From Ectocarpus siliculosus (Eukaryota; Sar; Phaeophyceae; Ectocarpales; Ectocarpaceae): DNA of 42,902 bases. The stretch spans positions 726,473 to 769,374 of the forward strand of contig FN649736.1 of the NCBI GenBank assembly GCA_000310025.1, written 5' to 3'. This document shows, in pieces, positions 7,365-35,249 of the stretch; the stretch's first letter is position 1; each line of letters starts with the position of its first letter. The translations under genes were made by a program, and so were the position numbers. The notes beneath the pieces are model-generated. The model saw only the letters and a program-made list of their open reading frames with translations. It did no database searches and was not told where the DNA came from.

Positions 7365-7919
7365 TTTGTCGTGTTCCGCCCCATTGATGCTTGGCGGCTA
7401 GGCTACACCTTTCCAAGGTACAAAGACAAGTGTATTCTATTGTATTTGAAGCATTGATCGCAGTCACACAGGAAGAAGTCTCCACCGTTTGCTGTTGATG
7501 CTTGTCTTCTTGAATTGCTGCTACGTTCTGCGTCGTTTGACTGAAATATCGTCGGGGCAAAACAGACAGCTTGGTGCGACCCGGGCCTGAGTGACTCGCT
7601 GGTTGTCGTGCTCGTTGTCGAGGTGGTTGATGGAACTGACGATAGTCTTGTGAGTTCAAGCTGCTGTGGTGGAAAGCCGACATCAGCATCACTGTGTCGA
7701 GCTGATGATGCATCTACCCGTAGGCGGGAAAGGTGTGCCGGCTAGAGATTGATGTTGCGAGCACAGATGTGAGCTCGAAGTAGCAGCGGATGGTATGAGG
7801 TTCAAACAACTCCGCGAAGAAGAGAGGGCCTCCCGGGAAGACACTATACGGAGTGGGAGAAGCTAAAAGAACTGCGAATAAGTTCGATGGAATTACGTGG
7901 AGTACATTTTCTGGGAACA

Positions 7920-8158
7920 TTGTGCGTGAGGCCGGCCATGAGCTGCTCAGACGAAAGCTCTTTCGAGAGCATGGGTTCAACAGTTGTGCTCTTGCTTGTC
8001 TATCTTCTATCTACCGTAGCACAACCAACGTGGGTGTACCTGAAAACTGTTTCTTTGCTGCATATATGACATCGAAATAGTTGTTTTCGAGCAGCAGCGT
8101 TTTCCTCAATTACACGTTGGGATGTCGACGCGGCTTAAAAGGAAGAGCAGTGAATTAT
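7920..8158. mobile_element. 239-bp insertion absent from the paralogous copy
   Basis: In copy A the string AACA (7916-7919) is followed by 239 bp, then AACA again (8159-8162) and CGAATCGGACGGGATG. In copy B the same point reads GGGAACAGCGAATCGG with one AACA and no insert. This fits an insertion with a 4-bp target duplication. No clear terminal inverted repeat is seen, so a deletion in copy B remains possible. Confidence 0.45.
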
Positions 8159-8270
8159 AACAACGAATCGGACGGGATGTACACACGGCGCCGGCATCGG
8201 TCCAGGGGCAACCGGGGGAACTTGTGCTGATTTCATAGCACGACGAGCGATCGGCAATCGGTACATAAGA

Positions 8271-8633
8271 TTGTTCTACTGCAGCAAAGAACAAAACATC
8301 GATGAGCACCTCGCAATACTTCACGCCAGCGCGGAAGTTGTACAGGAAACACGGAGGCAACCTACACGCCATGGCGCCATCACACCACCATATCACGACA
8401 TAGGCAGGCCTCCAAACGCACTTGTTGTTGCCGGAGTCACGCTGATACGGAGTATTCCCGAAAAGAACACTTGCCCTCCATGCTCGACAGTAGTGGGATT
8501 CCTCTTGACCAACCCTCCACCGTTGTTAGAGCACGCACCAACAGGCTACGAAGCAATCATCAGCCCAACACACAACATGAATGAGCCCCACTTTATTTAC
8601 CACCTCTCACATCCACGTTCAAAAGGCTTTTAG
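8271..8633 (+). pseudogene. Relic ORF of unknown function, paralogue of 32529-33344
   Basis: This 120-codon open stretch matches the middle of the 272-codon ORF in copy B, with conservative changes (for example DEHLAILHAS here and DDHLDIFHAS there). Here the upstream part is broken: a short length difference near 7845-7855 shifts the frame, and the 239-bp insert at 7920 separates the halves. No domain is recognised. It could be a relic gene or a non-coding repeat that happens to be open. Confidence 0.3.
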
Positions 8634-8743
8634 AATAGATATGATAGGTCCAACTTGCAACCAAGCACATTCGGAGCTTCCCGCAAAGCTCCTGGACAAA
8701 CAACCATTGCTTTATGTCTCAGCATGGTAAACATTCACTCCCC

Positions 8744-11700
8744 TTACTTCCTCTTCCCTAGCTTTGAATCACACCACGGGTCCCTTCGCAAGGGGTCGAA
8801 GCAACGGGCACAATTCCTCAACGAAACGTCCAGGGTTGCCCGGGCGGCGTCTGTGGCCGTACCGGCGGATGTGGTCATGTCCGTGATCTCCGCTCTTGCA
8901 GCGTCAACGAGGGCCTCCGAAGAGGCCATGACCGCGAGCAAGGCGGCGGCGTCGGCGGCGGCGTCGGCGGCGGTTTCTTTCGTGAAGGTGACGGCCCGCG
9001 CCGTTTGCTCGGCGACGACCTTGCGCCGCGCGTTTGCCCCGGGAGACTGGTCACAGCTGGAGCAGACCCAGCTTCCCTCGGGGATGGCGTCGAGGTTTAC
9101 ACAGGCGGCATGGAACCCTGCCATCACAAGATTGTAACGGGGCGGAAGGAAAATATGACAAAATGCGTTGGCGACGCGGAGGTCAACGCCAAGTTTACCG
9201 CAAAATCCAATTTTACGGCAGGTGTTTTGATTGAAAGCATGATTGACAATCAATTTGTTCGTAAATCTGCAAGCGGCACGGTCGCCTACGGCAATGGGGG
9301 TACCAGTGACAAGTAAGAGCAGATCGTCTGAGACTGGACGGTTTAGAAACCCAACCCGCACCCTGGCACTAAGCCCAACTTGACCCACGGAGGAGGTGTA
9401 CAGCCAAGCAACGGTTTTGGTAGTATCTTTATGTTGAGGTACTTGTTTGGTGCACCCAAAACACGACCCGAACAGGCACGTGAGTCTCGACAAGGAAGTG
9501 CTGATGATATGTCCACTCACCCTTGCTGCATGCGCCCTCGCAGTACACCAGCAGGCCCTTTCGGTGGCACCTGTGGCAACACTGACAAAGAGGAACACGC
9601 GCAACCAAGACATCAAAAGTGGTAGGAATTGAGCGCTACACATAGACCGTGTATGATGCTGTGGGTTTCTTGTGTCCAAAGATTTGCGCGTTGTTGCGTG
9701 GGTTGCATGTCAAACGCTGAACGTGTACAGGCCCAGAGCGCGGGACGCATATTCCGGCAAATTCATCTTGGAGCAAGCGAAGAGGACAACCTGTTGTCTC
9801 GAATGTGCTGCATGCATGCCGAAGACGCCACAGCTTCGTACTTACTTCGAGTTTGTCGTTCCTGTGTTGTGTCATGTTGTCCGGGCGGACGACGACCACA
9901 AAGGCGGCGCCATAGAGTCAACCGGCAGACCGGCAACACAGAGATAGGACGGCCACGGGAGGGGGGCGAACCACAAGGTTTAAAACACCGTGGTACGTGG
10001 CGGTGGATACCATTATTAGACTACAGCAACAAAATATCCGCCGGATGGCGGCCCGTTTGGTCTGGTGCGACGATCGATTCGGTCCCAAGTTGTGCAGGAA
10101 ACAAAGATGCGATTTGATCATATGCTAAGGAGACGAGATTCGAGAAGCAGGAACAGAGCAACGAAGGCGACAGTGCCTCCTTCTTCTGTGGGACGACAGG
10201 GTTAAGAACGCCGGAAATGGACAAGAGGATCCGGGCGATTGTTGCGGGTGTTTTTTTGTACTCTCCACCTGAAAAGGCCGTGAGCGGCGGTCATCGAGCG
10301 CAGGAAGGCACAGGTCAAATCTTCCCAGTCACTTCACCCCCGCCATCGAGCGTTATTCTTGCAACGGTCCCTCAGCAGTTGACTCACCTCGCAATTTTGA
10401 CCACTTCGTCGTACTTCTTCGATGTCTTAAGGGCGAGATAGGCGGGACCTGTCTTCCACCCGCTGTTGTAGCGCGTGCTGCACTCGCCCGCGGTGCGCAT
10501 GATAGACTGAGAGTCGAAGTGGCATTGGCGTACGGGTGGAAAACGGGGAGGCTTAGCCTGCGGTGGGTTTGGTGAACACTAGCAGAAACAAAAAGCACAG
10601 TTGGCGTCTTCACGCGTATGTTATAGGATTCAGATGTGTAGACGAAACCAGACTTCATCACGCGTGCATACCACTACACTTGGCGTTGTCGGCTTATTCG
10701 TACGGTGTTGTCTGGCTTGGTTGTGTCTTGGCGCGGTTTGGTGCTTTAGACTGCTGCTGCAGTTTTTTGCGCTTTCGCCCCAACCACAGCTTAGCTTTGC
10801 CTCGCTTATCGGTATGTCTCAATCTAGCGTCGGCTCATCGGACTCCGCTTCGGCGAGCCCTGAGCATTCTGAACGTTCGCGTTCGCCGGTGTCACCGCCT
10901 CGCGTAGCGACCTTCGGGTCCCCGGCAGCTGGCCGTCAGGCCACACAGCTGCTGCTGTCTTCGGACGGTGCTCGTGCCGCTGACCCTGTTGCCGATGCCG
11001 CTCGTTTGTCAGAGCTTCGCGCTCAACGCATTCGGGAGAGGTTCGCCTCGCCGGCTTCGGTCGACGCTAACCCCGTGGGTGCTGTCCTCAAACCGCCAGC
11101 ACCCACACCTGGAACTTCGGTTTCTGCCTCTGTGTCTTTGGGTGTACAACAGCAGTCCGTCTCGACGGCTGCTGGTGATGAGCTTTCTGAATTCCCGCGT
11201 GAACCACGTGTCGACTCGAATTTTCCTCTCGCCCCATCCACCGTTGAGCACCCTCCTCTTGGGACCGACATCGGTTTCGACCATGTTGCTGGCCCTGTAG
11301 TACAACGCTTGTCCAGTCGCTCGGCTTCTCGCAGCACGTTGCAGTTCGACTATACAGTGCCGGCGATTCCCCCTTTTTCTTCTCGTAGCGATCGTGTACA
11401 AGCAGCGGCTCGCGCTCAACGGCTTCGTGACCGTCGTGCATCTGCTCCAGTGACATCACCGCTTGCAGATTCCGCCGCATCACCACCCACTGTTCCAGTA
11501 GTTTCGACTACACGGGCGATTTCGATTGCCTCTGGTGCACTCCCCACAGTAGCTTCGTCTACCCCAGCTCTTTCGGTTGATTCTACTGCATTTGATCCCG
11601 TGGTTTCGCCCACACAGGCCATTTCGTTTGCCTCCGATGCTTTAGCTTCAGTAGTTTCGACTACAGGTGCAGTTTCGGCTGCTAACGTGCCTGTCCCTGC

Positions 11701-14700
11701 GGTCTCGACTGCTGTAGGTGTGTTTGCCTCCATCCCTTTAGCTCCGCCGCTACCAACAGTTTCGACTGTTCGCGGTGCTGCTGCCCCACCTTTGCGTACC
11801 GTTTCGACGCTGCGTACTGCTGTGACGTCTGCCCCCCCACATGCCTATCATGTTCCCACTACTAGTGCACCTGTCTCTGCGGTTTCGACTGCTGCACGTG
11901 TACTTTTGCCCATTCCATTAGCTCCGCCCCTGCCCACAGTTTCGACTGCTGGCGATGCTATTATTCCTGCAGCTCCGCCTCTTCGCACCGTTTCGACCCT
12001 GCGTACAGTGTCGTCTGCCCCTTTCCCCGCTCACACTACTTCCACACAGAACCCTGTGTCAGCGGCTTCGGCTGCTGTAAACACCGCTGTTTCTATGCCA
12101 GTAGATACGCCTCTGCTCGCATTTTCCACAGATTCACGTGTTCACACGGCGGGTTTCGATCCTACCGTTTCGACCGACTCTGCCATGCTAGCTCCTGCTT
12201 CGGCGCCCCTAGCTGCGACCTCGGTTGTTTCAGCAGTACCCTCTGCCCCTACCCCACCCCTTTACCCTTACGCCGTGCCCCCACCCCCCCCCATGCTTTC
12301 CTCTTCGCATGAACGTGCTGCTACGGCTGATGCTTTGCATCGTCTCGAAATCGCAAAGCGCTATAATCGCCATCTCCACGGCCTTCTTAGCACCATGGTG
12401 ACCACGACTCCGGGCCCCAAGCACGAGCCGACATCTTCAGCTCGGCTTTCGACTCCCGAGCTTCGGGATTCCACCACCGGTGGCGGAACAAGGTCTGCAG
12501 TCACCGGCCGGCCGGCCGAGCCTGTCTAGATGGTCCTACCCCCCTCGGCTTCGGCCACCACCGCTGCTTCGGCGGCACCCTCGGCTTCGGCCACCACCGC
12601 TGCTTCGGCGGCGCCCTCGGCTTCGGCCGCCACCACCTGCTTCGGCAGTACCCCCGGCTTCGGCCACGGCTTCGGCCGCGGCTGCAACTTCCGGGCTTGG
12701 CCACGGAAGTGGCCATCGCGTTGCCGGCGGTCGCCACCATACAGGAGGCGGTGGATGTGGCTAACGCCTCCCGTCCGGATCTTCGGTATCTGGCCGGCCG
12801 TTTCCTCGCTGGGATGCGGACGGCCAACGCCCGTGCCACTGCTCCGGTGGTGTACCCTGGCTGCAGCGGTCCGCCTTTAGAGGCTTCCTATGTATTCCAG
12901 CAGCCGGCGCCGGGTCGTGTCAAGCAGGTGCAACCGAGTCGGGAGAGTGGTCCTGGTAGCTCGGGCGAGGAGTCGGGCTGGAGTTCGGCCGGAGCATCGC
13001 GTCGACCCCCGGCGCCTTCGTCCTCTTCGGTGGGTGGTATCCGGGAGAGAAAGGTGGCCAAGCGTGGCGGGGATGGCGCTCGTGGCTCCAAGAACAAGAG
13101 CAAGACCGGTTCCGGCTCGGACACCAGCTTGCCCCGCAAGCCAGGTCGTCAAAGGCAAGTAGTTCCGTCCCTCATGGACGCGACTTCGGATGCTCGTTTC
13201 TTTTTGCGTGATGATTTTGACCTTCCGGCTTCGGCCCCCCCCGTTTCTTCGGAAACTCGTGTTGCGTTTTCGAACCTTCCGGCTCGGCCCCCCCCGTTTC
13301 TTCGGAAACTCGTGTTGCGTTTTCGAACATGCCACCGGCTTCGGCCCCCCTCGTTTCTTCGGAAACTCGTGTTGCGTTTTCGAACATGCCACAGGCTTTC
13401 GGCCCCCCCCGTTTCTTCGGGAACTCGTGTTGCGTTTTCGAACCTTCCGGCTTCGGCCCCCCCCGTTTCTTCGGAAACTCGTGCTGCGTTTTCGAACATG
13501 CCACAGGCTCCGGCCCCCCCCGTTTCTTCGGAAACTGTTGCACCTCCTGTTTTTTCTACCGCTGATTATGCTGTAGGCTCAGGAATCGCACACAACCCCG
13601 GGTTCTCAAACCCCACCCCCCCTTCGACTTTTGTGCCCGTACAAGATGTTCATCATGTTGTACCGTCTTGGGATCGTGTTCCGCCTGCTGCTCCTTCGGT
13701 TGCAGCTGCTGCACCCCCTGTCGTTTCGGATGACAGTGTCTTGCCACTTTCTTCCAACATTGCACATGCTCGTCAAGCCACAGTAGATGCGGCTGCTTCG
13801 GCAGTTCGCAAGGCTCACGTAGTTACTGTCCAACGGGCGTACATCACTCTGAACTTGAAAAAAGTTGGAAATGTCGCTACCATGCCCTTCCCTTCAACTT
13901 TGTTGCCTGGGGACGGCTACCAACAGCTCATCCGCACAACACGAACGGCCTTGTCCGACATATTGTTGCTGTGTGATGACCAAAGCGAAGGGTTGGACAG
14001 TACTGATTACGTGCCTGGATGGGAACGGCCTCTCGAAAAGAAACTTTCGGGTGCGATCACCCCTGACAAGCCCTCTACTGCCGATCTTGTCCTTTCCATC
14101 GCTGATTACTTTCAGCAGGTGAAGAGAAGCTTGGACGGCGGCGCCACCGGACCAGAAGCTTTTCAGTTGCTGTTGCGTCATCTTGCGGAGCAATTTGATG
14201 TCGGCGACCGTCAAGAGTCGTTTTTGAGGCTTCAACAATTTGGAGTAGCAGATGGTACTTCTTTCGCGGATTACCTTCGTGCTTTTCGTTTGTTGGTTTC
14301 GTCTGTGACAGGCTCTGAGCGTACTTTGGCCCCTAGCGTATCCATGGTTCTAGAAATAGTGCGGCATTCGGTCTGCAAGCAATTTCCGAGTTTGTCTCCG
14401 ATTTTGTACCCGGGTGCTCTGGCCACGGCCGTCACTCCCTTTGCGTCGATTGCGGATATGTGGGAGGCGTTCGCGCCTCTAGCGACAAGTAAAACCCCGG
14501 CTATCGGCGGTTCATCTTATTTTTCGTTGTCTTCGGCGCGTGGTTCCTCGCAGCCTCGGCGGTCCCAACACCGCGCCCCCGCGCCTTCGGGCCAGTGGGC
14601 ACCAGGTTCAGCTCAGAACCCTGTAGTTTTGCCGGTACAATCGCACGATGCTGACCCTTTCACACGCAACTATGATTCTTGGCCTGCTTCGCAAGCCGAT

Positions 14701-17700
14701 TGGTCTGGTGTATACGCTCTCACTTCTAGCTTTCGCAACGCGGAGGATCCTTTTTTGTGGACTCCTTTGTTGACACAAGAGGCTCGTTCGCAAGCCTTCC
14801 GCGAAAACAGGAATCGCTGTCTGAACTGCTCGGGTGAAGACCATTCCATGAAGCAATGCGTTGCACTGTTCACGAATTCTAGTGGGTTGTTGAACCCCGA
14901 GTTGGGTCTCCTCAATGACGATTCTGCTGCTTTTAGACGTTGGCAAGGCCGTATGCGGTCTTTTCGACGAAAAAGTGCGGACAACCGCCAAAACAATCAG
15001 GGTAGACGCCACCAGCGCTCTTCCTCTTCGTCCTCTCAGCGTCGAAACCACGCTGGGAATCGCCGTTCCGACGGTGGTAGTTCCCCTCACACTCATCAGA
15101 CACAATCGCACAACAGTGGGTATGCCCCAGGAAATTCTGCGGGTAACTCTCACCCTCAGCAACACCCTTCGATCAACACCAACCACACTGGTGCTCTGTC
15201 CCTCTATCAACCACAAACACATGCACACACCGGTCCTTCGTCTGGCATCATGGTTTCGACCAATCACAATGCCCGTCAACCTGGCAACTTTCAAAATGGT
15301 GGTCGTTCTCGCAGCGGATGACTCATCGGTGGCGGTTCGCTTACTTCCCCCGGACCGCCTTCAGCATCTTCGGGGACCTCGTCTCGTTCTTCACAAGACG
15401 CTCGTGTGTCACGCTCTGTTGCCCCTAATACTTCGGTTTTATGCAACAACGACAATACTTCGGTATCTGTCGCGCCGTCACACACTGTTGCCTCTAGCAC
15501 TTCGGTCCTACGCAACGATAACCACACTTCGGTGATTGTTATCCCTTCTGGTACTTCGGTGCCGCACAATAACAACCATACTTCGGTATCCGTTGTTTCT
15601 CCCAGTGTCGATCAGGTCGGTATCCAGACATACGCTCTCGTCCCACCTTCTACATCGCACTTATCATCTGCCACCTCTGCGTCTCTGCCTCTTCGGACTG
15701 GCGCTCCGTCAGAAATTAACCAGTCTGGCGCGAGTGCTGTCTTGAGGTGCGGGAACAGAACCGTAGGACCCTCGGGGCCATCGAGTACCGCTCGTTTGTC
15801 GGGCACCGTTCGTTCGCTCCCCCCGTCGTCTGTAGATCAGACCGGCCGTAGCCATGCGCTTTGGACGATTGAAGAGGAATCGCCTGAATTGGTTACCTCG
15901 GGTGAATCTTCGGATACGCTCAACTCGTCTGTGCTCGCTTCCGTTGAGGGTTCGCCCTCGATTGTTGCACCGGTAGCTAACTTGACTGGTTCCGACCGGC
16001 AAGTTACAGGGTCAAATTCGCCTGGCTTCGAATCGCGTTGTTCTCTTGGTCCTGACCGCCGAACATCATCAGATTCCGCCACGATATATTTCGACCATGG
16101 GTCGTCTTCGGACGCTCCATCCCTTCCGACGCACGCTCGCCCCACGGCGCCCGATACCAGGCCGCCGCGACCGACGTCGACAGTGTTGACACCACCGCTT
16201 CGGGAGGACCCTCCTGGAGTGACCTCCGAACAGCCGGCGGTCTCGCGTACCTTGTCACGGAGGAATGGCCAGGAGCACCACGCCCGGTGTGGTTCTTTAA
16301 CCGACCCGGCCTTGGCGGCCGTTCCTAGCGAAAGCAGCCTGTTGAATGACACCTTACGAGGCGTTTCTTCAGGTTTAGAATTGGGGCGCACCCAGCGTGA
16401 TGTCGCTGGCCCAATTATTGCGAACAATTCGACTCCCGTCGATTCTTCGCCGGTCTCTGACATACCCGAGACCGTCCTCATGGACGCTCACGCCGTAAAT
16501 TACAATGCGGGCGTTCCGGCTGCCTCCGCTTCGGCTACACCAGCTTCGGCTGCCACCTCAGCTTCGGCTGATCGCACTCCAGGTGTTTCGACTCCTGCAG
16601 TTCCCGCTGTCTTCGACCCGTCTCACGAGTATTGTACTCCTGACATGGTCTTCTTTTGGCAGCCCCCCTCTCCCTTTTCCCAATGGACCCCGTCGACTTT
16701 TGTGGTCGATGGAGTGGTGTACTCGTGTGCTGAGCAGTTTTTCGCTGCGGAAAAAGCTCGTCTTTTCGAAGACCATTGCGCTTTACAAAACATCATGCGC
16801 GTGTCCGATCCTGCCTTACACAAGAAGTTTGGCCGTGGTGTCCGTGGTTTCGACCCATCTCTTTGGGAACACGAGCGCGAAAATATTGTGCTCACTGGCT
16901 CTTACGCAAAATTTAGTCAAATTCCGAGTTGCGCGAGCATCTTCTCGGATCTGGCGACAAAATCCCTGCCGAAGCTAGTCCCTACGACCGTATTTGGGGC
17001 ATTGGCCTTCAAGCCGATGATCCTGACGCTCTATCCACCTCTCGATGGCGTGGCCTCAATTTGTTGGGCAACGCCCTTCAACGAGTACGCAGTCTTTTGC
17101 GATGCAATGCCCCGCCACCCGAGCGCAGCTCTCGTTTGCTGCCCCCCAACGACCACGTTTCGACGTCGTCTCAACATAACGCGGTTTATGAAGTTAGCCC
17201 TTCTACACACCAGCGTCTTCGGATGGCCTCAACCCCTCCGTCGACTGAACGATTCGCGTCGTTTTCACAATACGCTGCGAATGTTCCATCGGATCATGAC
17301 ACCGCTGTTTGGGCCGTGTCTTCCGGGTGCCCTCAGCCATCCTCTTCCTCTTCTTTGCTTCCTGAGCAAGGTCCGGATTTAGTTGATGGTGTTGTTACCA
17401 TCGATGATGACTCTTTCACCACCCAAATCCTCACTCACAGTGGTTCAGCTTCTGTTCAGTTTGGATGTGTTGCTCTTTTAGACACGGGTTCCCCGCAGTC
17501 TTTTATTAGTGCATCTGCGTGGGAATCCATGAAAGCCGCTTCGGCCGCTTCGTCGTTGTCTGAGAAACAAACCCAACCTCGCTGTTGGGGAGGTTTCGGC
17601 GAATCTGCTCCACTTCAAACTTCGACTATTGTCCGTTTGAGCGTGCAGTTTCTTCGCAAGCGCCTTCCTACTTCCTCTCTCGCTGTTTGGGCGTACGTTG

Positions 17701-20700
17701 TTCCCGATGGTGTTATGCATCATGACGTGCTCCTTGGGAGAGACAGTTGGATGCGGTTTAGCGACCGCTCTTACCGCACTTTGCGTGCCAAACGCCCTGG
17801 TGACCGTGTTTTTGGTGAGCTTACCCTGGCTCAGCATAGCAGTTGCGGTGCCACCGCATTTGCTCACGATTTGTCTTCCACAGATGGTAACTACCAGCTT
17901 CGCTATGCTGGAAAACATTCCGTCCAACTTCACCCTGAACATAGCCTTGTTCCGGTTAATTTGGTACGCAGCGATGGCTCTCCAGCCCTCGTGGGTAACT
18001 ATCTCGTGGTTATGCTTCCACAATGTGCTATGTTTTCTTCCGAGGAACACTTTGTGCAAAATGGTTGCCAACGACTCCCGCTCGCGGGTATCTCTTCACT
18101 CGAACCAGGCGACGTTCTGGGTACAGCTTCGGCTCCCCTTCTTCGCGTGCCTCTCAGTGCTGTGTCTCGCCACAGTTTGAGCGATGGTCTTCAATCTGCG
18201 GCTCAAGATCCCACCACTGCTTCGGGCAGCTGGGTTCCGGGTCCTGTTTCGACAGATGGCATTGATTCGTCTGCCACGCATCGCATTGATGACCCCTTCG
18301 TGTATAATTTGCATGAGCGACCCACGCCGTCGCAAAGCGGCAAAGAGGACCCTGGTTCTGCCAGTGCTTCTCTTTCGTCGCCTCCGCCTGCTCTTCTCGA
18401 GCGGTTGGCGTCTGAACAACGTCAGAGTTTTTCCCGCGTGTGGGATAAGCTCCCCTGCCATCTCCGTGAGATTTCCTTCGATCTCCATGGTCCGGGTTGG
18501 ACTCCAGATGTCATCACTCAGCTTGGTAACGTCTTGTGCGACTATCATGATGTCTTCTCGAGTTCCCCCACCGACTTTGGATCTTGTCCGCTTTTTCCTT
18601 TCAAGCTTACAGTTCCTCCGGGCAGTGCACCCGTCACATCTCGTCCATACCGCGTTAACCCCCCGGTGGCGAAACAAGTTGACGCGATCCTTGATCAATA
18701 TCTTGCGGCTGGTCTGATCCAACATTCGACCTCGCCCTACTCGAGTCCTTTGGTAGTCATACCGAAGAAATCTGGTGGTGTTCGCATCACTGTCAACTAT
18801 CGCAAGCTCAACAAGCTTTGTGCTTTGAGCCAGCTTCCGATTCCTCGAGTTGATGATACTTTGGACAAGTTGTTGAAAGGGCGAATTTATTCCCTTTTCG
18901 ACATGAAGTCTTCATTCCACCAAATCACGGTTCACCGTGATACAATCCCTTTGACGGCATTCGTGACGTCTTCCGGGCTTTTTGAGTGGTTGAAGATGCC
19001 TCAAGGCAGTTCTGCTGCCCCTGGGTGGTTTTGCAAGGTGGTCAACGAAGTCATCAAAAATCTCCACGGTGTTGCATCGTACTTGGATGATTTGATCGTT
19101 TTCGACGACAACCCTGCTTCTCATGTTGATACCATGCGCGCTCTGTTTGAACGCTTGCGCACACACAACTTGAAACTCACCCCACCGAAGGCCACCATTG
19201 GCGCTACCGAAGCGGATTTCCTCGGCCACACCATTTCCCCCGACGGTGTTCGGCCTAACGGGGCCAAGGTTGCGGCCCTCGCCAAAATGCCCATGCCTAA
19301 GGATGTTAAACAACTTCGCTCTCTTCTCGGCAGCCTCAGCTACTACCGCAAGTTCCTTCCCAACATGGCTACGCGAATTCGACCTTTGACCACTCTTCTC
19401 AAGAAGCAGGCGACGTTCGCCTTCACCCCTGCCATGGAGCAAGCTGTTCGCGTCCTGCTGTCTGAGTTGGCCAACCCTCCTGTCTTGGTTTGTCCAGATT
19501 GGGATGCCGTTACGGACGGCTCGCGACCTTTTCGCCTCTACTGTGATGCTAGTCGCGATGGGTTCGGCGGGACTCTCGAACAAGAACAGCCGGATGGCTC
19601 CATCCGGCCCATCGTCTTCATCAGCCGAGCTACTTTGGACTCCGAACGTCATTGGACTCCCCTCGACCTCGAGGCGGGTAGCATCGTATGGTGCATCAAA
19701 CGACTCCGCGGAAATTTGTGGGGCACGAAATTTCGCATTTTTACCGACCACAAATCTCTTGAGCATTTTGCCAAGGTGGGGGAGAACAATGCCCGCGTTC
19801 AGCGTTGGCTTGAATTTCTTACCGCCTACAATTACACTCTCGAGTACCGCAAGGGTTCCGCAAATGGCAACGCTAATTTCCTCTCTCGCCTTCCGATCGA
19901 TGCGGCGGAATGTGACCGATCTGGTCGCAGTCGCTTGACACCGGATGACGATGAGGAGAGCGTATTCTTCATCCGTTCTTGTGGCCTTACGCCTTCTGGC
20001 CATCGCGCCGTGGGTGTTGGCTTGGGTGGGCTCGTCCCCACTTCCCCGACTTCGGTCTTGGGTGGGCTGGCCCCCTCTACAGATGATTTTGTCGACTTCC
20101 GTCGGCATGGTCCACGTCTCTCGCCGTCAGGCCTTTCGTCTCCGCCTGGCGTCTGGAACATCGCACCCTGGCCGTCTAACAACTCCCGCGGGTTGTCTCC
20201 TTCGCTACGACGCCTGTGTGGCAGGACCCTCGATTGGTCTGGCTCCTTACATTCTTCGGTGGAGGACATTTTGGCTCTCGAGCCCGAGTCTTCGCCGGCC
20301 GTCTCGCCGACTGCAGCATCACGACGGACTCTCGACCCTACTCAACTATTTTCCACGCGAACTCGCCGTCGCACGGCGGTTGTGGCAGGCACGCCCCTCC
20401 CGCCCGTGGATTATGGTTTCTCTGAGGACCCGCCTGCTCCTACTCGGATTTCCGCTTCGCCCAGATCGTTTCGACGTTCCCCGCCTGCACAATCAGCATC
20501 GACGGCGCCCCCCGTTTTGACCAGGTTGGTTTCGGCTCCTGGTGCTGACACTTCGATCCCAGACCTCCATACGCCTCTGGCTCGTGGAAGGGATCTTGCG
20601 TCTTCGACGCATCCTGCAACTTCGGCTGCTCCTGCCCAGCAGTCTTCTGCTGCTCCCGATTCTTCGGAATCTTCGACGCATTTGGTTTCGACCACTTATA

Positions 20701-23700
20701 CGCCTTCGTCTTCGGTTTCCGCTGCTACTCTGCCTTCGGGTGGATTGCAGCCGGAGCCTCAGGAATCGGCCCCCTCTTCTATCGAGGCGGCTTTACATTC
20801 CTCGGCAGATTTAGCCTTCCGGGCGTCTGTCGAACGTTTCTCGCATGCTGATTGGGCTCGCGAGCAACGTAACGAACCTGTTTGTGATGCAGCTATTCGT
20901 TTCATCCTTCTGGGTCGGCCTTCGGCTCTCCCTCCGGATTTCCTGGATCATCTTCCGTCCGCTCGTCGACCCCCTCTGTCGGAGATTCGTGACCTGTCTC
21001 ACAAAGGCCGGTTACATGTTGACGATGATGGTTTGGTCTTGCTTGTTCGCAAGCAAACAGCGCCCCCGTCGTCTACGACCACACGTCCTGGCGGGCGTGC
21101 TGCTCGCCTTCTCAACGACGAACCCATTCGGATTTATGTTCCCATGCTCATGCGTCCGTGGATCATGCAAGCCTGTCACGCTGATGCATCCTGCCACCTC
21201 GGTGCCGCTCGCACGCTTAGCATGCTGGAACGTTTTTATTGGTGGGTTGGCATGAGTGTTTGCACGAAGTGGTGGGTACGGCATTGTTTGCGATGCCAAG
21301 CTCGCAAGTCATCTCGTCAAACGCCTCGATGGCCTACTTTGTGCCTTCCGCTGCCTTCGGGCCCTGGTGTATCGGTGAGCGTCGATTATTTCGGTCCCCT
21401 CCCGTTGACACCGCGCGGAAACACATATATTCTGCTTTTCACTGATCGTTTCAGCCGCCGTGCTGACATGTACGCGGTTACGGCTGCAGAATTCACCGCC
21501 GAAGGCACCGCTGACGTACTTGTCAATCGGTATATCCCTTTATGGGGTTGCCGTTTGAGTCTCTTGTCTGATAATGTCTCTCAGTTTTGTTCCAAATTGT
21601 CGCAGGCTGTATACGCCCGTCTGGCTATACGCAAAGTGGCTACCAGCTCTTACCATCCCAACGGCAATGGGGGTGTGGAGCGCGTCAATCACACTATGGC
21701 TCAGATGTTGGCTATGGTCGTCAATGAGAGGCAAGATGATTGGGACATTCATTTGCCGCACGTTGAGTTTGCCTACAACAATTCGGTTAGTGCCGCTACT
21801 GGTTTGGCGCCCAACGAGGTGCATATGAACCGACTGCCACGCATGCCGATGACGGTTTTTGAGCATCCATATGCTCGAGGCCACCAAAGCTTGCATCGCG
21901 ATCAACTTGAGTATTGCGATCTTGCTGCTGATCGCCAACGTCGTTCTTACGATTTAGTTCGCGAACAGCACAACCTGTCCGTTTCGAGGATTGAGCGGCG
22001 TAACTCCGCCCTATCGGATGCTTTGCGCAAGGTCCCCTCATACACCGTCGGTGGATGGGTTTGGGTGTACAACACCGAATCTACCATTCGCCAAGGTGTT
22101 CGTTCAGGCACGGATGACAAGGTCCTCAAGGCTAAGTTGTCTTTCCTGTGGACTGGTCCGTTCAAGATCTTGGCCGTGGGTCCGTGTCCTGACGCTCCCG
22201 ACGGTTGTCCTCTGGCTTCCAAGTTACTGTATTTGGATCTTCCATCGGATCTGTCGGGTCCGGACTCGAAAAACCGTGTGTCAGTTGCGCGTTGCAAGCC
22301 TTGCGCTAATCCGCATGACACTGAAGACTTGCCTCGGTTCCTGCCTGCCGGCCTTACACCGTATGTGCTAAACTCCTATGCGAATAAATCTCCTCCCTAC
22401 CATGTTACGGAAGACGACGTGTCGACTCCGGTCGAACGTCTCGAGGTTGACCGCATTAGTGGCCATCAGTCTGTTCGTGGCCGTGGTGGCACCATCGCTG
22501 TTTTATACCAAACGCATTGGAAAGGTCTTCTTCGTCCTTCTTGGGAACGTGAGATGGACCTCCAGCATTCCAAGCCCCACATTCTCCGGTACTGGACGGG
22601 TTCGCCTGATCAACATCGCCAAACGAATCGTCGCTATCGGGCGATGCGTATTGGTGCGGCCACCCGCGAGATGGCGCGCGCTAAAGGGGAGCGAGCTTTG
22701 CCTTCGGGTTATTCGCTCGTCTCTCGTTCAACTTGGGACCGTCGCTTCGCCAATACTCCGCTACCTGCAGGCGCCTTCTTCTGGTACAAAGCTCGCGATG
22801 GATTCTGGTGGTTGGGCAAGATTACTGGACCGCCTCTACCGTCCGACTTCTACGTCGTCCGCTTCTTGGACGATCCTGGCCCTGTCAAGCTCACCCTTCC
22901 TGATGTTCGCTAATCCACCGCTGAAACCGCCGTCTCCGGATCCTGGTGCCTTCAAGTTCACAGCGGCAGTGCCCTTTTTAAGGGGATCCTTCGCAACGTC
23001 GACATGTCGCGTGGTGACCCCGGGGCTGATTCGTTGCCTGATAACGTGGCGCGCCCCCATTAAGACGACGTGCTAGTTGTCTTGGCTTTCTGTTGTTTTC
23101 AGCGTTGTTTGGGTTGCTTTTTAGCCTTGGTCGGTTTTCGCTTTCTCCTCGCTTTATTTTGTGCCTTTAGCGTTTGGTCACGACCTGTAGGTGTTTCGCG
23201 CCCATTGTTGCCCCTTCTACACTGCCGTGGCGACTGCGTGAATGGCGTATCTGATCGTTTTCTTACGATACCGGTCTTGTTGTGGTTCCTACAGTGATCC
23301 TTTCTTTTTTGTCGTTTTGACGACCTTTGTTTTTCTTTTCTGTTTTTCTTCCTTCTTTGTGTTTTCCTTTCTTTGGTTCCGACCTTCTTCCGGTCGTCGT
23401 AGGCTTTTCTTAGCCCCGTCAGTTCCTTCCTGTCTGTGTCTTTTTGTCGTTTTAGAAGTCAAACGATGGTCTTGCGACTCATCGAGTGAGAGGTGTGGGA
23501 GGGTGAATTGTGCTGTTTTGGAGCTCCACATCCTCGATACTTTCATTTAGAGACTCGACAATTGCTTGTCAAGACTCCGAGGTTTTACAGTATCTGCGTA
23601 TGAGAACCTCCAGGATGGGCTAGTGTTATAGGATTCAGATGTGTAGACGAAACATAGAAGAGCTTGGTTCCTTCTAGAAGGCGCGGAGAGATGTAACTCT

Positions 23701-30727: not shown

Positions 30728-32528
30728 GGTCAGAGTGAAAGTGGCAAGTGGGGGAGCCCGGACTACGACCAGATCCGGCTCGTAAATTTCGCCTCTTTCT
30801 GTGTGAACCTTCAGTTGCACCGAACGATGCTTTGCGACCACAACACGGGACCCTTGAAATATCACGTTGTCGAAGAGCGACATTCAGACTGTGTACAGTA
30901 AGGTTTGACATATTCGCGCGAACAGTTTCCACACCCGCCTGAGTTGGCAACTTGACGACAGAAAACAGCCGCGGGACAGATTGCACTTGGTGTCCGCCTA
31001 TCAGCTGCCTCTGTCTTTCTACACAGCAGTGCTTGATTCGCAACACAACGCAACATGGGGTCCGAACGTTGACTGCTTTCACTATAGGCCCTCTCTCTGT
31101 CACCGATGTTTCCTTCGCCTGATAGCCTATGGCGACGATGTCCGCTAGTCCTTCTATGACAGATAGAACTACTCGTTGTGCCCAGATAGGTTCCTTCGCT
31201 AAGACTAAGATGTTGTCCGTGTCGCGCGTCGCAAGTGATCGGTTAGGTGGAGGGGAGGGTCAGTGTGAAAGTGGCAAGTGGGGGAACCCGGACGACGACC
31301 AGATCCGGCTCCTCAAATGCACCTCTTTCCGTCTGAACCCTCGGTTGCACCGAACGTCCGAGTTGCACTGAACGTCTGAGTTGCACCGAACGATCTTTAC
31401 GACCACAACACGGGACCCTTGAAAATATCACGTTGTTCAATGGCGGCATTCAGACTACAGTAATGGTTTGACCAAATCGCGCGAACAGTTTCCACACCAA
31501 GAGAATGAAAGTTGACGACAGACAGATAGTTAATGGCAGCGGAACAGATTGCACTTGGGGTCCGCCTATCAGCTGCCTCTCTCTTCTATGTATTTGCCGC
31601 CTACTTGGCGCCTTGTCGACTTTCGCGCACTACTTGATTCGCAACACAACGCATATGGGATCCAAACGTTCACTGTTTTCACTTCAGTAGTCCCATGGCT
31701 CTTGTCTCTGTCACCGATGTTTCCTTCACCTAATACCCTACAGTAAGGCGCACGATGTTTGCTTGTCCTCGGATGATAGGACCTCGGTCTTGACCCCAGA
31801 CAGGTGTACTCGTTGCGCCCAGAGAGGCTCCTTCGTTAAGATGTTCGCCTTGTCTGTGTCGCGTGTCGCACGTGATCCATTACGTGGAGGGAAGGGTGAG
31901 TGAGAAAGCGTTTTAGTAGGGGAGGCCCTGACTATGACCAACATTCGGCTCCAAAAATATTCGGCCTATTTCCGACTGAAGCATTATGTGTACCATACCG
32001 GGATCTCTCGCATGTAGCTCCCATCCCGAATACTATACTACCGACGTAGTGATCAACTCACCTCTCACATTCACTTAGAACAAGTGTTGCTGTTGTATCC
32101 GAATTGCATCGAAGAATCTTGTTTGATTTCATTGGTACTTCCGAAACGACCTGCCGTGTTTTGCCCAATTGATGCTTGGCGGACAGGCTACAACTCTCGG
32201 CGTAGACAATAAACAATTAATGGGCGCATTGGCCGCGGCCACACAGGAAGAAGTCTCCACCTTTTTTGTGGTGCTTGACATTTTGAATAGCTGCTCCATT
32301 CTGCGCCGTTGGCCTGAAATATTGTCGGGGCGAAACAGACAGCTTGGTGTAGCGACCCGGGCCTGAGTGACTCGCTGGTTGTCGTGCTCGTTGTCGAGGC
32401 GGTTGATGGAACTGACGATAGTCTTGTGAGTTCAATCTGCTGTAGTGGAAAGCCGACATCAGCATCACTGTGTCGAGATGATGATGCATCTACCCGTAGG
32501 CGGAAAGGGTGTGCGGGCTAGAGATTGA

Positions 32529-33344
32529 TGTTGCGAGCACAGATGTGAGCTCGAAGTAGCAGCGGATGGTAGGAGGTCCAAACAACTCCGCGAAGAAGAG
32601 AGGGCCTCCCGGGTAGACACTACGGCGTGGGAGAAGCTAAAAGAACTGCGAATAAGTTCGACGAAATTCCGTGTGGAGTACAATTTCTGGGAACAGCGAA
32701 TCGGACGGGATGTACACACGGCGATATCACCGCCCGGCATCGGTCCAGGGGCAACAGGGGGAACTTGTGCCGATTCCATAGCACGACGAGCGGTCGGCAA
32801 TCGGCACGTAAGATTGTTCTACTGCAGCAAAGAACAAAACATCGATGACCACCTCGACATATTTCACGCCAGCGCTGAAGTCTTACAGGAAACACGGAGG
32901 CAACCTACACGCCACGGCGCCATCACACCACCATATCACGACATAGGCAGGCCTCCAAACGCACTTGTTGTTGCCCGAGTCAAGCTGATACGGAGTATTC
33001 CCGAAAAGAACACTTGCCCTCCATGCTCGACAGTAGTGGGATTCCTCTTGACCAACCCTCCACCGTTGTTAGAGCACGCACCAACAGGCTACGACGCAAT
33101 CATCAGCCCAACACATAACATGAGCCCCAATTTCAGTACGAACCCTCACATCCACCTTCCAATGGCTTTTAGAAAGGATATGACAGGGCCAACTTGCAAC
33201 CAAGCACATTCGGAGCTTCCCGCACAGCTCCCGCACAAACAACCACTGCTAAATAACTCAGCATGGCATACATGCACTCCCCTTACTTCCTCTTCCCTAG
33301 CTTCAGATCACACAACGTGTCATTTCGAAAGGGGTCGAAGGTAA
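32529..33344 (+). CDS. 272-codon ORF of unknown function in copy B
   Basis: Open from just after a TGA (32526-32528) to 33344, with an AG acceptor-like site near 32541. The first half is charged and probably helical (KQLREEERASRVDTTAWEKL, FRVEYNFWEQRIGRDV); a Pro-rich middle follows (NTCPPCSTVV, LLTNPPPLLEH). The paralogue in copy A is frame-broken and interrupted by a 239-bp insert. The end of the ORF runs into the left arm of the palindrome. No domain is recognised. It may be an old transposon gene or a chance open frame. Confidence 0.3.
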   Translation, partial: CCEHRCELEVAADGRRSKQLREEERASRVDTTAWEKLKELRISSTKFRVEYNFWEQRIGRDVHTAISPPGIGPGATGGTCADSIARRAVGNRHVRLFYCSKEQNIDDHLDIFHASAEVLQETRRQPTRHGAITPPYHDIGRPPNALVVARVKLIRSIPEKNTCPPCSTVVGFLLTNPPPLLEHAPTGYDAIISPTHNMSPNFSTNPHIHLPMAFRKDMTGPTCNQAHSELPAQLPHKQPLLNNSAWHTCTPLTSSSLASDHTTCHFERGRR

Positions 33345-33560
33345 GGGCACAATTCCCTAGACGCTTCGTTGAGGAGTTGTGCCCTTGCCTTCGATCCCTT
33401 ACGAAGGGAACCGTTGTGTGATCTAAAGCTAGGGAAGAGGAAGTATGAGGAGTGAATGTTTGCCATGTTGAGATACTAATAATTGGTTGTTTGTCCATGA
33501 GCTGTGCGGGAAGCTCCGAATGTGCTTGGTTGCAAGCTGGCCCTATCACGTTACCTGTAT
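33170..33560. repeat. Near-palindrome with ~185-bp arms
   Basis: The left arm (to about 33356) and right arm (from about 33375) are inverted copies of the end of the PHD gene plus its downstream flank; both hold GCACATTCGGAGCTTCCCGC or its complement. Only about 18 bp separate them. A small perfect hairpin, CCTGTATACTTACAGG, sits at the right edge. Confidence 0.8.
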
Positions 33561-33929
33561 ACTTACAGGATGTCGTCAACGAGGTCCCGAGCTCTAGAAC
33601 GAAGGTGTTTCCTTTTATGTTAACTCAAGTGGTGAGAAACGATCTTCCGTGGAACAGGCTAACCGGGGCTGTGCATCAATGGAGGGGCCACAACCAGAAT
33701 TCCCGTCATTTGCGGGTGCTTCCATGAAATGGGCACACTAATACTAATTCTGACGGGGGGTTGTTGTACACAAAACAAACGCTGTAAGTCGTGGACATTT
33801 TTAAAGGAAGGGTAAGCATGAAGACGCCAATGTCCTTTTTGTTTCTGCTAGTGTTCATCAAACCCACCGCAGGCTAAGCCTCCCCGTTCTACCCGTACCA
33901 ATGCCACTTCGACTCTCAGTCTATCACGC

Positions 33930-34040
33930 GCACCGCGGGCGAATGCAGCACACACTACTACAGCGGGTGGAAGACAGGTCCCGCCTATCTCGCCATAAAC
34001 AAACGAAGAATTACAGCGAAGTGGTCAAAATTACGAGGTG
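33930..34040 (+). pseudogene. Paralogous SANT exon copy
   Basis: Inverted copy of the exon at 10506-10388. It keeps the CTCAG acceptor and a GTGAGT donor and encodes TAGECSTHYYSGWK, but one base is missing after the CTCGCC shared with the gene, so the frame is lost near its end. Confidence 0.6.
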
Positions 34041-34449
34041 AGTAACCTGAGGGACCGGTGCAAGATTCAAAATCGATGGCGGGGGTGAAGGGATTGGGAA
34101 GATTTGACCTGTGCCTTCCTGCGCTCGATGACCGCCGCTCACGGCCTTTTCAGGTGGAGAGTACAAAAAAACACCCGCAATCGCCCGGATACTCGTATCA
34201 TTTTCCGGCGTTCTTAACCCTGTCGTCCCACAAAAGAAGGATGCACTGTCGCCTTCGTTGCTCTGTTTCTGCTTCTCGAAGCTCGTCTCCTTAGCATATT
34301 GTTAGATCACCTCTCTGTTCTCTGCACAACTTGGGACCGAATCGATCTTCGCACTAGACCGAACGGGCCGCCATCCGGCGGATATTTTGTTGTTGTAGTC
34401 TAATAAGTTTATCCACCGCCACGTACCACGGTGTTTTAAACCTTGTGGT

Positions 34450-34580
34450 TCTCAAGAGGACCAACCTTCGCAGTACACCAGGGGGCCTTTTTGGTGGCAC
34501 ATGTGGCAACCCTGACAAGAGGACCAACCTTAGCAGTAGACTAGGAGGCCATTTTGGTGGCATATGTGGCACCACTGACA
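34450..34580 (-). pseudogene. Tandem duplicate of the PHD half-exon
   Basis: On the minus strand the PHD first-half exon and its TTGTCAG acceptor occur twice, about 63 bp apart: WCHICHQNGLLVYC followed by a stop, and GCHMCHQKGPLVYCEGW. Zinc-ligand spacing is kept in both. Neither has a proper donor or continuation. Confidence 0.65.
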
Positions 34581-35249
34581 AGAGGAACAACGCGTAACCA
34601 CCAAGACATCAGGTTGTAGGAATTGAGCGCTACACATAGACTATGATGCTGTGGGTTGCTTGTGCCCAAAGCTTTGCGTGGATTGCATGTCAAACGCTGA
34701 ACGTGTACAGGCCCAGAGCGCGGTACGCATGTTCCGGCAAAGTCATCTTGGGGCAAGCAAAGAGGACAACCTGTCGTCTCGAATGTGCTGCATGCATGTC
34801 GAAGACACCACAGCTTCCTACTTCGAGTTTGTCGTTCGTGTGTCGGGTGATGTTGTCCAGACGGACGACGACCACAAGGGGGCGCCGCATAGTCAACCGG
34901 GAGATATGGATCGCGTGCCAGGACCCAATCAGACCAGCAACAGAGAGACGGGACGGCCACGGGAGGGGGGCGAACCACAAGGATTAAAAAACCGTGGTAC
35001 ATGGCGATACCTTTATTCAGCAGCAAAACGTCCGCCGGGTGGCGTTCCAATTGGCCGGGTGCGCTGATCGATTCGGTCCCACGTTGTATACAGGACAGAG
35101 GGGCGATTTTTTTACAACATGATACAGTACAATACACGTACAGGAGAGGTGATTCGAAAAACAGAGTCAGAGCAACGAAGGCGAAAAGGCCCTCTTCTTT
35201 TGTGGGACAGCGTTCAGAATGCCGGAAACGGACAAGATGACAAGATGAC

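What the first reader, a model, noticed from the sequence alone, without database searches (positions are those of the whole stretch)
16629..17105. NADAR domain built into a Ty3/gypsy retrotransposon between gag and protease
Seen: hallmark NADAR strings (SCAEQFFAAEKA, FGRGVRGF, SPYDRIWGIG, WRGLNLLG) lie between a CCHC gag and a DTG protease, in the collinear order of the polyprotein. Known: NADAR proteins handle NAD/ADP-ribose derivatives, and some reverse ADP-ribosylation of guanine. Inference: the element may use it to remove host ADP-ribose marks from its RNA, cDNA or capsid, a counter-defence or NAD-metabolism role. I cannot say whether this arrangement has been described.
Basis: partly seen in the sequence, partly recalled or inferred. 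Interest (0 to 1): 0.9.

Follow-up and report, generated by a model that had tools for sequence, protein, structure and literature searches.

The report
NADAR domain in brown-algal retrotransposons
A family of jumping genes in what is very probably a brown-algal genome carries a conserved enzyme-like domain that in other organisms removes ADP-ribose from nucleic acids; the pairing was published in 2025, but what the element uses it for is still untested.

Summary
In detail: a NADAR domain (PF08719) lies between gag and protease of a 13.3-kb Ty3/gypsy-type element (window 10619-23891). It is not private to this copy. Of 150 NADAR hits in the same 189-Mb genome, 126 lie just upstream of a related reverse transcriptase, in at least five families whose synonymous sites are saturated while NADAR keeps about 59% amino-acid identity, more than protease. 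Catalytic residues (E43, K50, E125 in published numbering) are kept in 47 of 47 copies read. So it is an old, selected, YbiA-type domain at the N-terminus of Pol. This copy is broken: the domain changes frame inside and the 5' LTR is internally deleted.

The arrangement is in print: Dinatale et al. 2025 (PMC12477816) report it for one Ectocarpus Gypsy lineage. Not found there: gag and pol share one frame across a single UGA-C (36 of 36 junctions located, 47 copies searched), followed by a covarying hairpin/pseudoknot candidate like retroviral readthrough signals. NADAR would then be made only within Gag-Pol and packaged with RT and integrase. Best guess: it erases guanine ADP-ribose from element RNA or cDNA; nucleotide or flavin clean-up is the main rival. 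No activity was tested.

The parts
10619..23891 (+). Whole Ty3/gypsy-type element (family F1), TG...CA ends, 4-bp flanks CGTA/CTTA (3 of 4 identical, read by eye)
   Evidence: Empty-site copy of the surrounding repeat at 33401-34300 (reverse) aligns up to 10618 and again from about 23892; ends read from sequence
10619..10678 (+). 5' LTR, 60 bp, equals the 3' LTR minus about 208 internal bp
   Evidence: 100% identity over 30 and 36 bp to the two ends of the 3' LTR
23624..23891 (+). 3' LTR, 268 bp
12391..15321 (+). gag open frame (stop to stop), ends in TGA
   Evidence: no Pfam match
14818..14859 (+). CCHC zinc knuckle CLNCSGEDHSMKQC of Gag
   Evidence: sequence; same motif type in the other four families
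15319..15321 (+). in-frame UGA between gag and pol, followed by C
   Evidence: TGAC at 36 of 36 junctions located among 47 copies of five families
15331..15359 (+). candidate hairpin S1 (arms 15331-15339 and 15351-15359), 9 nt after UGA
15346..15376 (+). candidate pseudoknot stem S2 (15346-15350 with 15372-15376)
16651..16944 (+). NADAR, N-terminal two thirds (frame of 15322-17382)
   Evidence: PF08719 E 1.8e-20
16920..17102 (+). NADAR, C-terminal third (frame of pol ORF 16917-22913)
   Evidence: PF08719 E 6.4e-15
17370..17756 (+). aspartic protease region (GPDLV...LLDTG...LLGRDSWMR)
   Evidence: conserved block in five families; weak PF13650 match, E 0.093, below its cut-off
18759..19235 (+). 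reverse transcriptase
   Evidence: PF00078 E 1.5e-25
19521..19829 (+). RNase H
   Evidence: PF17917 E 1.9e-29
21138..21659 (+). integrase zinc-binding and core
   Evidence: PF17921 E 4.6e-13; PF00665 E 1.5e-6, 28.8 bits, below its cut-off of 32.6
22443..22595 (+). possible C-terminal chromodomain
   Evidence: PF00385 E 0.005, 17.2 bits, below its cut-off of 25.1

Best explanation
SHOWN: the domain is an old YbiA-type NADAR at the N-terminus of Pol in at least five families of one Ty3/gypsy-type lineage, with its known catalytic residues intact and under purifying selection. INFERRED, fairly strong: ribosomes read through a single UGA-C helped by a downstream hairpin/pseudoknot, so NADAR is made only in the minor Gag-Pol product and is packaged with protease, RT and integrase, at enzyme dose, in the particle where the RNA is copied into cDNA. 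INFERRED, moderate: inside the particle it works as a ribosyl N-glycosidase that removes ADP-ribose from guanine bases of the element's RNA or new cDNA, lesions that would block reverse transcription or mark the copy. The modifying enzyme (a host ADP-ribosyltransferase) is not identified. By function this would be a counterpart of the dUTPases that some retroviruses carry in Gag-Pol (comparison from general knowledge).
For: NADAR is present across the families: 126 of 150 NADAR hits pair with a listed RT hit, and at least 5 of the 24 RT hits left over, the window's own among them, also have a NADAR match upstream on the same strand (coordinates). NADAR is an island: mean identity between family representatives 58.6% against 54.5% for protease, 66.8% for RT and about 30%, with many gaps, for the two linkers. 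Synonymous sites are saturated or nearly so between families (pS 0.74-0.90, pN 0.23-0.35). Variants shared by at least two copies are 11 nonsynonymous to 25 synonymous against a neutral 77% nonsynonymous (p 3e-9). E43, K50, K75, R79, W89, E125, D130 and W133 equivalents are kept in 47 of 47 rows, R93 in 45 of 47. The last-strand residue is Glu (YbiA type), not the Asp of the BC4488/DarT1-linked or His of phage NADARs. NADARs reverse guanine ADP-ribosylation on DNA and RNA in published assays. Junction TGAC at 36 of 36 located; S1/S2 in five of five family representatives at 0.9-3.6% chance each.
Against: No activity, expression or particle data. No DarT or KptA/Tpt1 match in the genome, one partial Macro match and four short PARP matches, although a six-frame search is weak where genes have introns. 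All five domains score 139-151 bits against the riboflavin-intermediate N-glycosidase model TIGR02464 (cut-off 73.7), so the sequence does not prefer ADPr-guanine. The D86 equivalent, which touches the adenine-side ribose, is not kept. The NADAR tree by itself does not firmly unite F1-F3 with F4-F5, so more than one acquisition is not excluded. Within families F2 and F3, pooled pN/pS is 0.47 and 0.50 (F1 0.11, F4 0.12, F5 0.30). Single-sequence folds of the junction are not unusually stable (z -2.05 to 0.68), S1 is disturbed in F1 copy L030, and the pseudoknot criteria were set after seeing the sequences. For Tca2, another element with UGA plus a potential pseudoknot, the junction did not suffice for readthrough in yeast (abstract). 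The 47 rows came from the better-scoring hits, so they lean towards conserved copies; 4 of them have a stop inside the domain.
Confidence: 0.45

Rival explanations
1. Metabolite clean-up: the domain is a YbiA-like N-glycosidase that destroys reactive riboflavin intermediates or damaged nucleotides near the reverse-transcribing particle, a nucleotide-hygiene enzyme unrelated to defence.
For: All five families exceed the TIGR02464 cut-off about two-fold; a packaged house-keeping enzyme has precedent in retroviral dUTPase (general knowledge).
Against: No clear reason why a retrotransposon would keep an enzyme for a small-molecule pathway that the host can serve itself; the host appears to have its own stand-alone NADAR gene (two exon-sized matches within G000:C24:2125206-2127003).
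Confidence: 0.25
2. Signal removal: the domain acts in trans on soluble NAD- or ADP-ribose-derived immune messengers, as proposed for phage NADARs.
For: Proposed for phage NADAR and Macro domains (PMC9503650, passages).
Against: A domain made only by readthrough of a stop codon would be scarce and particle-bound, a poor fit for clearing a diffusible signal (inference); the same paper favours macromolecular targets for eukaryotic RNA-virus NADARs.
Confidence: 0.12
3. Targeting: NADAR binds ADP-ribosylated chromatin or RNA without needing catalysis and helps choose insertion sites or genomic RNA.
For: Gypsy-12_Ec32, the published NADAR example, is also reported to carry a putative chromodomain on integrase (PMC12477816; weak match here).
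Against: The three residues that published mutants show to matter for catalysis are invariant in 47 of 47 rows, more than a pure binder would need; NADAR sits at the far end of Pol from integrase.
Confidence: 0.1
4. Passenger: captured domain with no benefit, kept by chance.
For: Many copies, including this one, have stops or frame changes.
Against: Saturated synonymous change with 59% identity, and shared variants 11 N to 25 S.
Confidence: 0.03

Closest known systems
NADAR-carrying Gypsy lineage of Ectocarpus (e.g. Gypsy-12_Ec32), Dinatale et al. 2025, PMC12477816
   Same: [quoted passage not shown] putative chromodomain after integrase in Gypsy-12_Ec32; almost only bacterial best hits outside Ectocarpus (passages)
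   Different: I could not compare sequences (supplements not open, element sequences not held). The words 'stop codon', 'readthrough', 'frameshift' and 'catalytic' do not occur in its main text, so the UGA junction, the pseudoknot candidate and the catalytic-residue count appear to be additions
NADAR of Phytophthora nicotianae (taken to be PDB 8bau) and E. coli C7 NADAR, guanine ADP-ribosylhydrolases (PMC11543638)
   Same: E43, K50, E125 and most ADPr-contact residues
   Different: Stand-alone or toxin-linked proteins, with N-terminal extensions; retro NADARs are fused into Pol; D86 is not kept
Myxobacterial YbiA (Chondromyces crocatus YbiA-YarT antitoxin, PMC11125620)
   Same: YbiA type; six of the ten best bacterial loci for the retro NADARs are Myxococcota
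   Different: Bacterial antitoxin beside an ART toxin; no Pfam-recognised ART in the element ORFs scanned. C. crocatus itself was not compared
NADAR in Tx1 LINE ORF1 of Pacific oyster (PMC12477816) and in polyproteins of some animal RNA viruses (PMC9503650)
   Same: NADAR carried by a replicating RNA-based element (passages)
   Different: Different element classes; the oyster ones are reported as divergent hits
Stop-codon readthrough retroelements: Tca2 of Candida (UGA plus potential pseudoknot, PMC2194720, abstract); gammaretroviruses (general knowledge)
   Same: gag and pol in one frame, one stop, hairpin or pseudoknot several bases downstream
   Different: Ty3/gypsy-type lineage; UGA followed by C in five of five families; readthrough not measured

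Membership tests
NADAR superfamily (PF08719) | profile match over the curated cut-off across the whole domain | tested here: met
   window in two pieces, both over cut-off; 150 of 150 scored genome hits over cut-off, 103 of them with at least 425 nt and RT 1.3-1.8 kb downstream
YbiA subfamily of NADAR | Glu in the last strand (E125) rather than Asp or His | tested here: met
   47 of 47 rows; criterion from PMC11125620 and PMC11543638
Guanine ADP-ribosylhydrolase | E43, K50, E125 equivalents | tested here: met
   47 of 47 rows
Guanine ADP-ribosylhydrolase | removes ADP-ribose from guanine in DNA or RNA | not testable with these tools
   needs an enzyme assay
Riboflavin-intermediate N-glycosidase (TIGR02464) | score above the equivalog-domain cut-off | tested here: met
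   139-151 bits against 73.7 in five of five family representatives; activity not tested
Ty3/gypsy (Metaviridae) LTR retrotransposon | gag with CCHC, then PR-RT-RNase H-integrase in that order between LTRs | tested here: met
   LTR pair 60 and 268 bp; integrase core below its own cut-off in this copy
Ty3/gypsy (Metaviridae) LTR retrotransposon | RT falls among Metaviridae in a tree | not tested
   no RT tree was built; order of domains and Pfam matches only
NADAR-Gypsy lineage of Dinatale et al. 2025 | NADAR at the N-terminus of Pol | tested here: met
NADAR-Gypsy lineage of Dinatale et al. 2025 | chromodomain after integrase (reported for Gypsy-12_Ec32) | tested here: inconclusive
   17.2 bits against a cut-off of 25.1
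NADAR-Gypsy lineage of Dinatale et al. 2025 | sequence identity to the named families | not tested
   their sequences are not held here
Stop-readthrough gag-pol | gag and pol in one frame across one leaky stop | tested here: met
   20 of 41 loci listed have a CCHC gag frame running straight into the stop before pol, in all five families; TGAC at 36 of 36 junctions located. Leakiness itself not measured
Stop-readthrough gag-pol | stimulating RNA structure downstream | tested here: inconclusive
   S1 and S2 in five of five family representatives with changed but pairing bases; fold energies ordinary

The most novel reading that the evidence does not exclude
Brown algae ADP-ribosylate guanines in nucleic acid of invading or mobile elements, and this Ty3/gypsy lineage has kept for a long evolutionary time a packaged eraser of that mark, delivered by UGA readthrough into the particle. 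It would be a retroelement with a built-in counter-defence against nucleic-acid ADP-ribosylation, for which I know no tested precedent, and would point to an unknown ADP-ribosyltransferase defence in stramenopiles.
Probability: 0.25. Interest if true: 0.88.

Novelty: already known. Interest (0 to 1): 0.5.

Why it matters
The core arrangement is in print, so the find itself is a confirmation. It still matters: an ADP-ribose-processing type of enzyme kept by selection inside a retrotransposon's Pol makes the question of what NADARs do outside bacterial toxin-antitoxin pairs directly testable, in a lineage with more than a hundred natural copies and at least five diverged families as replicates. 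The UGA readthrough reading would fix where the enzyme acts (in the particle) and narrows the possible substrates to the element's own RNA and cDNA.

Tried and rejected
Rejected: recent host insertion into this copy only. Not supported: simple capture of the present host NADAR gene; in the tree the stand-alone genes of Pylaiella (P0010), E. fasciculatus (P0012) and an unnamed EukProt species (P0009) form a separate group with full support, and the deeper branching among retro, host and bacterial NADARs is poorly supported, so donor and number of acquisitions are unresolved. Led nowhere: gene neighbourhoods of seven of the nearest bacterial loci gave no clear partner gene. RT hits without a listed NADAR were examined as possible NADAR-less families: 8 of 24 were fetched (L049-L056). 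Five match F2 or F4 at about 85-97% over the part held and look like truncated or internally deleted copies (L051, L052, L053, L055, L056; L056 keeps 42 residues of NADAR). The others, L049 (54-64% to the families), L050 (79% to F1) and L054 (94% to F5 over one stretch of 109 residues), are partial and undecided. None of the 80 viral-collection NADAR loci kept (of 264) holds this RT. The DNA alignment of the junctions (A4) misplaced the 3' arm in F4 and F5, so pairs were read from script output and not counted with the pair-counting tool. Structure prediction could not be run: nine tries, always busy. Of 48 loci read, L059 was left out of the 47-row counts because of an insert inside the domain. 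RT rows for one search were limited to 20 copies open through RT. The Python scripts only waited.

Full report
WHAT IS THERE. The one fused protein found with the window's own Pol is from Ectocarpus sp. CCAP 1310/34 (P0001, 84% over 83% of the 70 residues searched, the NADAR C-terminal third), and the genome's apparent stand-alone NADAR gene matches Ectocarpus fasciculatus P0012 at 71% and 89% over two exon-sized pieces (within G000:C24:2125206-2127003, minus strand). A brown alga is therefore very probable. The element spans 10619-23891. A copy of the surrounding repeat without the insert lies at 33401-34300 on the other strand and places the ends. The 3' LTR has 268 bp; the 5' LTR has only 60 bp, identical to its two ends, which fits a recent insertion with an internally deleted 5' LTR.

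THE OBSERVATION. Pfam NADAR matches at E 1.8e-20 and 6.4e-15 in two frames. The domain changes frame at about 16.92 kb in this copy; the six other F1 copies read do not change frame there. Gag ends in TGA at 15319-15321, in the same frame as the following ORF.

HOW GENERAL. A genome search scored 150 of 230 NADAR candidates, all 150 over the cut-off; an RT search scored 150 of 502 candidates and listed 150 hits at 59-100% identity. 126 of the 150 NADAR hits have a listed RT hit downstream on the same strand, 122 of them 1.38-1.80 kb away. Both lists were capped, so these are lower bounds. Of the 24 RT hits left without a listed NADAR, at least five, the window's own included, do have a NADAR match in the search with P0012. 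The copies that I read fall into five families; RT identity to the window in them is F1 97-99%, F2 70-72%, F3 64-68%, F4 61-62% and F5 60-63%. Further groups may exist among the unread hits, for example RT at 88-92%. Ten related NADAR proteins from unnamed ENA records (P0016-P0031, one clade) are at most about 56% identical to the query; three of the ten (P0019, P0026, P0030) continue into the same protease region (best E 8e-14, 2e-9 and 3e-10), so the arrangement very probably exists in a second genome.

SELECTION AND CATALYSIS. Between one representative per family, NADAR keeps 54-68% identity (mean 58.6) with 0-2 gap columns; protease 49-67% (mean 54.5), RT 63-73% (mean 66.8, without F3), linkers about 30% with many gaps. 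pS is 0.74-0.90 and pN 0.23-0.35. The closest pairs agree between NADAR and RT (F1-F2 and F4-F5), which fits inheritance along with Pol, although the NADAR tree alone does not firmly unite F1-F3 with F4-F5. Within families, pooled pN/pS is 0.11, 0.47, 0.50, 0.12 and 0.30 for F1 to F5; variants seen in two or more copies are 11 nonsynonymous to 25 synonymous and singletons 73.5 to 52.5, against a neutral share of 77% nonsynonymous (p 3e-9 and 2e-6; transition bias ignored). RT in 20 copies gives 3 to 6 and 14 to 24; NADAR in the same 20 copies 7 to 14 and 11 to 11. The alignment to 8bau, read with the residue roles in PMC11543638 section 12, maps E43, K50, K75, R79, W89, R93, E125, D130 and W133; that 8bau is the P. 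nicotianae protein is my reading, since the residues named in the paper fall at its chain positions with a constant shift of two. All are kept in 47 of 47 rows except R93 (45 of 47); D86 varies. The 47 rows are among the better-scoring hits, those that I could fetch; one further locus (L059) was dropped, and 4 of the 47 have a stop inside the domain.

THE GAG-POL JUNCTION. In 20 of 41 loci listed, from all five families, a CCHC gag frame runs without a break into a single stop and on into pol. Searched with flanks only, the junction was located in 36 of 47 copies and reads TGAC in 36 of 36; in the other 11 it was not found, mostly because the stretch held was too short. Copies within a family are close relatives, so five is the honest number of independent cases. 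In each of five family representatives a hairpin starts 8-9 nt after the UGA, and its loop can pair with bases 9-12 nt after the hairpin. Read by eye from those calls, the pairs are kept although bases change: first pair C-G in F2 and F3, T-A in F4 and F5 (absent in F1); third pair G-C, G-T or A-T; loop pairing CTCCC/GGGAG-like in F1-F3, CGGT/ACCG in F4, TGCACAC/GTGTGCG in F5. Per family, 0.9-2.5% of dinucleotide shuffles and 0.9-3.6% of sliding windows meet the same criteria, but the criteria were set after looking, fold energies are ordinary (z -2.05 to 0.68) and one F1 copy, L030, has a damaged stem. I rate readthrough as likely and the pseudoknot as probable. 'Stop codon', 'readthrough' and 'frameshift' do not occur in the main text of Dinatale et al..

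ORIGIN. A tree of 69 domains puts the retro NADARs near brown-algal host genes and bacterial YbiA-type proteins, without firm deep branches. A myxobacterial YbiA (C. crocatus) hydrolyses guanine ADP-ribose and neutralises the ART toxin YarT (PMC11125620, passages).

MECHANISM. Shown: conservation, selection, catalytic residues, order of domains, one-frame UGA-C junction. Inferred: readthrough, packaging with Pol, and action on guanine ADP-ribose of element RNA or cDNA. The strongest counter-evidence is that TIGR02464 (riboflavin-intermediate N-glycosidase) is well exceeded by all five domains, and that the genome searches found no DarT, no KptA, one partial Macro and four short PARP pieces; these six-frame searches are weak where genes have introns.

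LITERATURE. Searches in the open PMC library: NADAR+retrotransposon (104 papers, 20 listed), NADAR+ADP-ribosylation+guanine (30, 15 listed), NADAR+YbiA (11), brown algae+retrotransposon+NADAR (2) and 'NADAR domain'+Gypsy (1). Among those listed, the one that I found to describe NADAR in Gypsy elements is PMC12477816 (abstract, outline and passages read); it suggests a role in processing the RNA intermediate. PMC7290008 (Phytophthora parasitica satellites, one occurrence of NADAR) was listed and not opened. Subscription papers and supplements were not searched. Readthrough with gag, retrotransposon and pseudoknot (13 papers) gave Tca2 (PMC2194720, abstract) as a precedent for UGA plus a potential pseudoknot. 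Claims about dUTPase and gammaretroviruses are from general knowledge.

VERDICT.

Noticed in passing
window 15319-15376; L019:1049, L032:1127, L028:1298, L041:1325: In-frame UGA-C at the gag-pol junction followed by a covarying hairpin/pseudoknot candidate in five of five family representatives, like retroviral readthrough signals.
   Followed up: yes
G000:C24:2125206-2127003 (-): Apparent stand-alone host NADAR gene, two exon-sized matches to Ectocarpus fasciculatus P0012 (71% and 89%); P0012 and its kin are separate from the retro NADARs in the tree.
   Followed up: partly
PMC7922944, Esi0017_0056: A stress-induced 391-aa Ectocarpus protein with a NADAR domain that raised stress tolerance in Arabidopsis; its relation to the retro NADARs or to the host gene was not tested, as its sequence is not held.
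   Followed up: no
P0016, P0019, P0021, P0023-P0027, P0030, P0031: Ten closely related NADAR proteins from unnamed ENA records; three continue into the same protease region, so the arrangement very probably exists in a second genome.
   Followed up: partly
window 10619-10678 and 23624-23891: The 5' LTR is a 60-bp internally deleted version of the 268-bp 3' LTR.
   Followed up: partly
window 7496-10618 and 32269-35109: The element sits inside another repeat that has a second copy in the window; part of it (33401-34300, reversed) serves as the empty site.
   Followed up: partly
G000:C3:3913787-3914242 and G000:C489:435177-435536: Open frames of 10887 and 6365 aa reported around NADAR copies; possibly runs of N read as open, not checked.
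   Followed up: no
window 10583-12529 and 12391-15321: The gag region lies in two overlapping long frames; whether this is a defect of this copy or the normal layout was not checked.
   Followed up: no
F2 copies L012, L013, L016, L022: Four F2 copies have the same frame offset between the UGA junction and NADAR, two of them (L012, L016) with the same upstream stop; perhaps a defective subfamily that was still copied.
   Followed up: no
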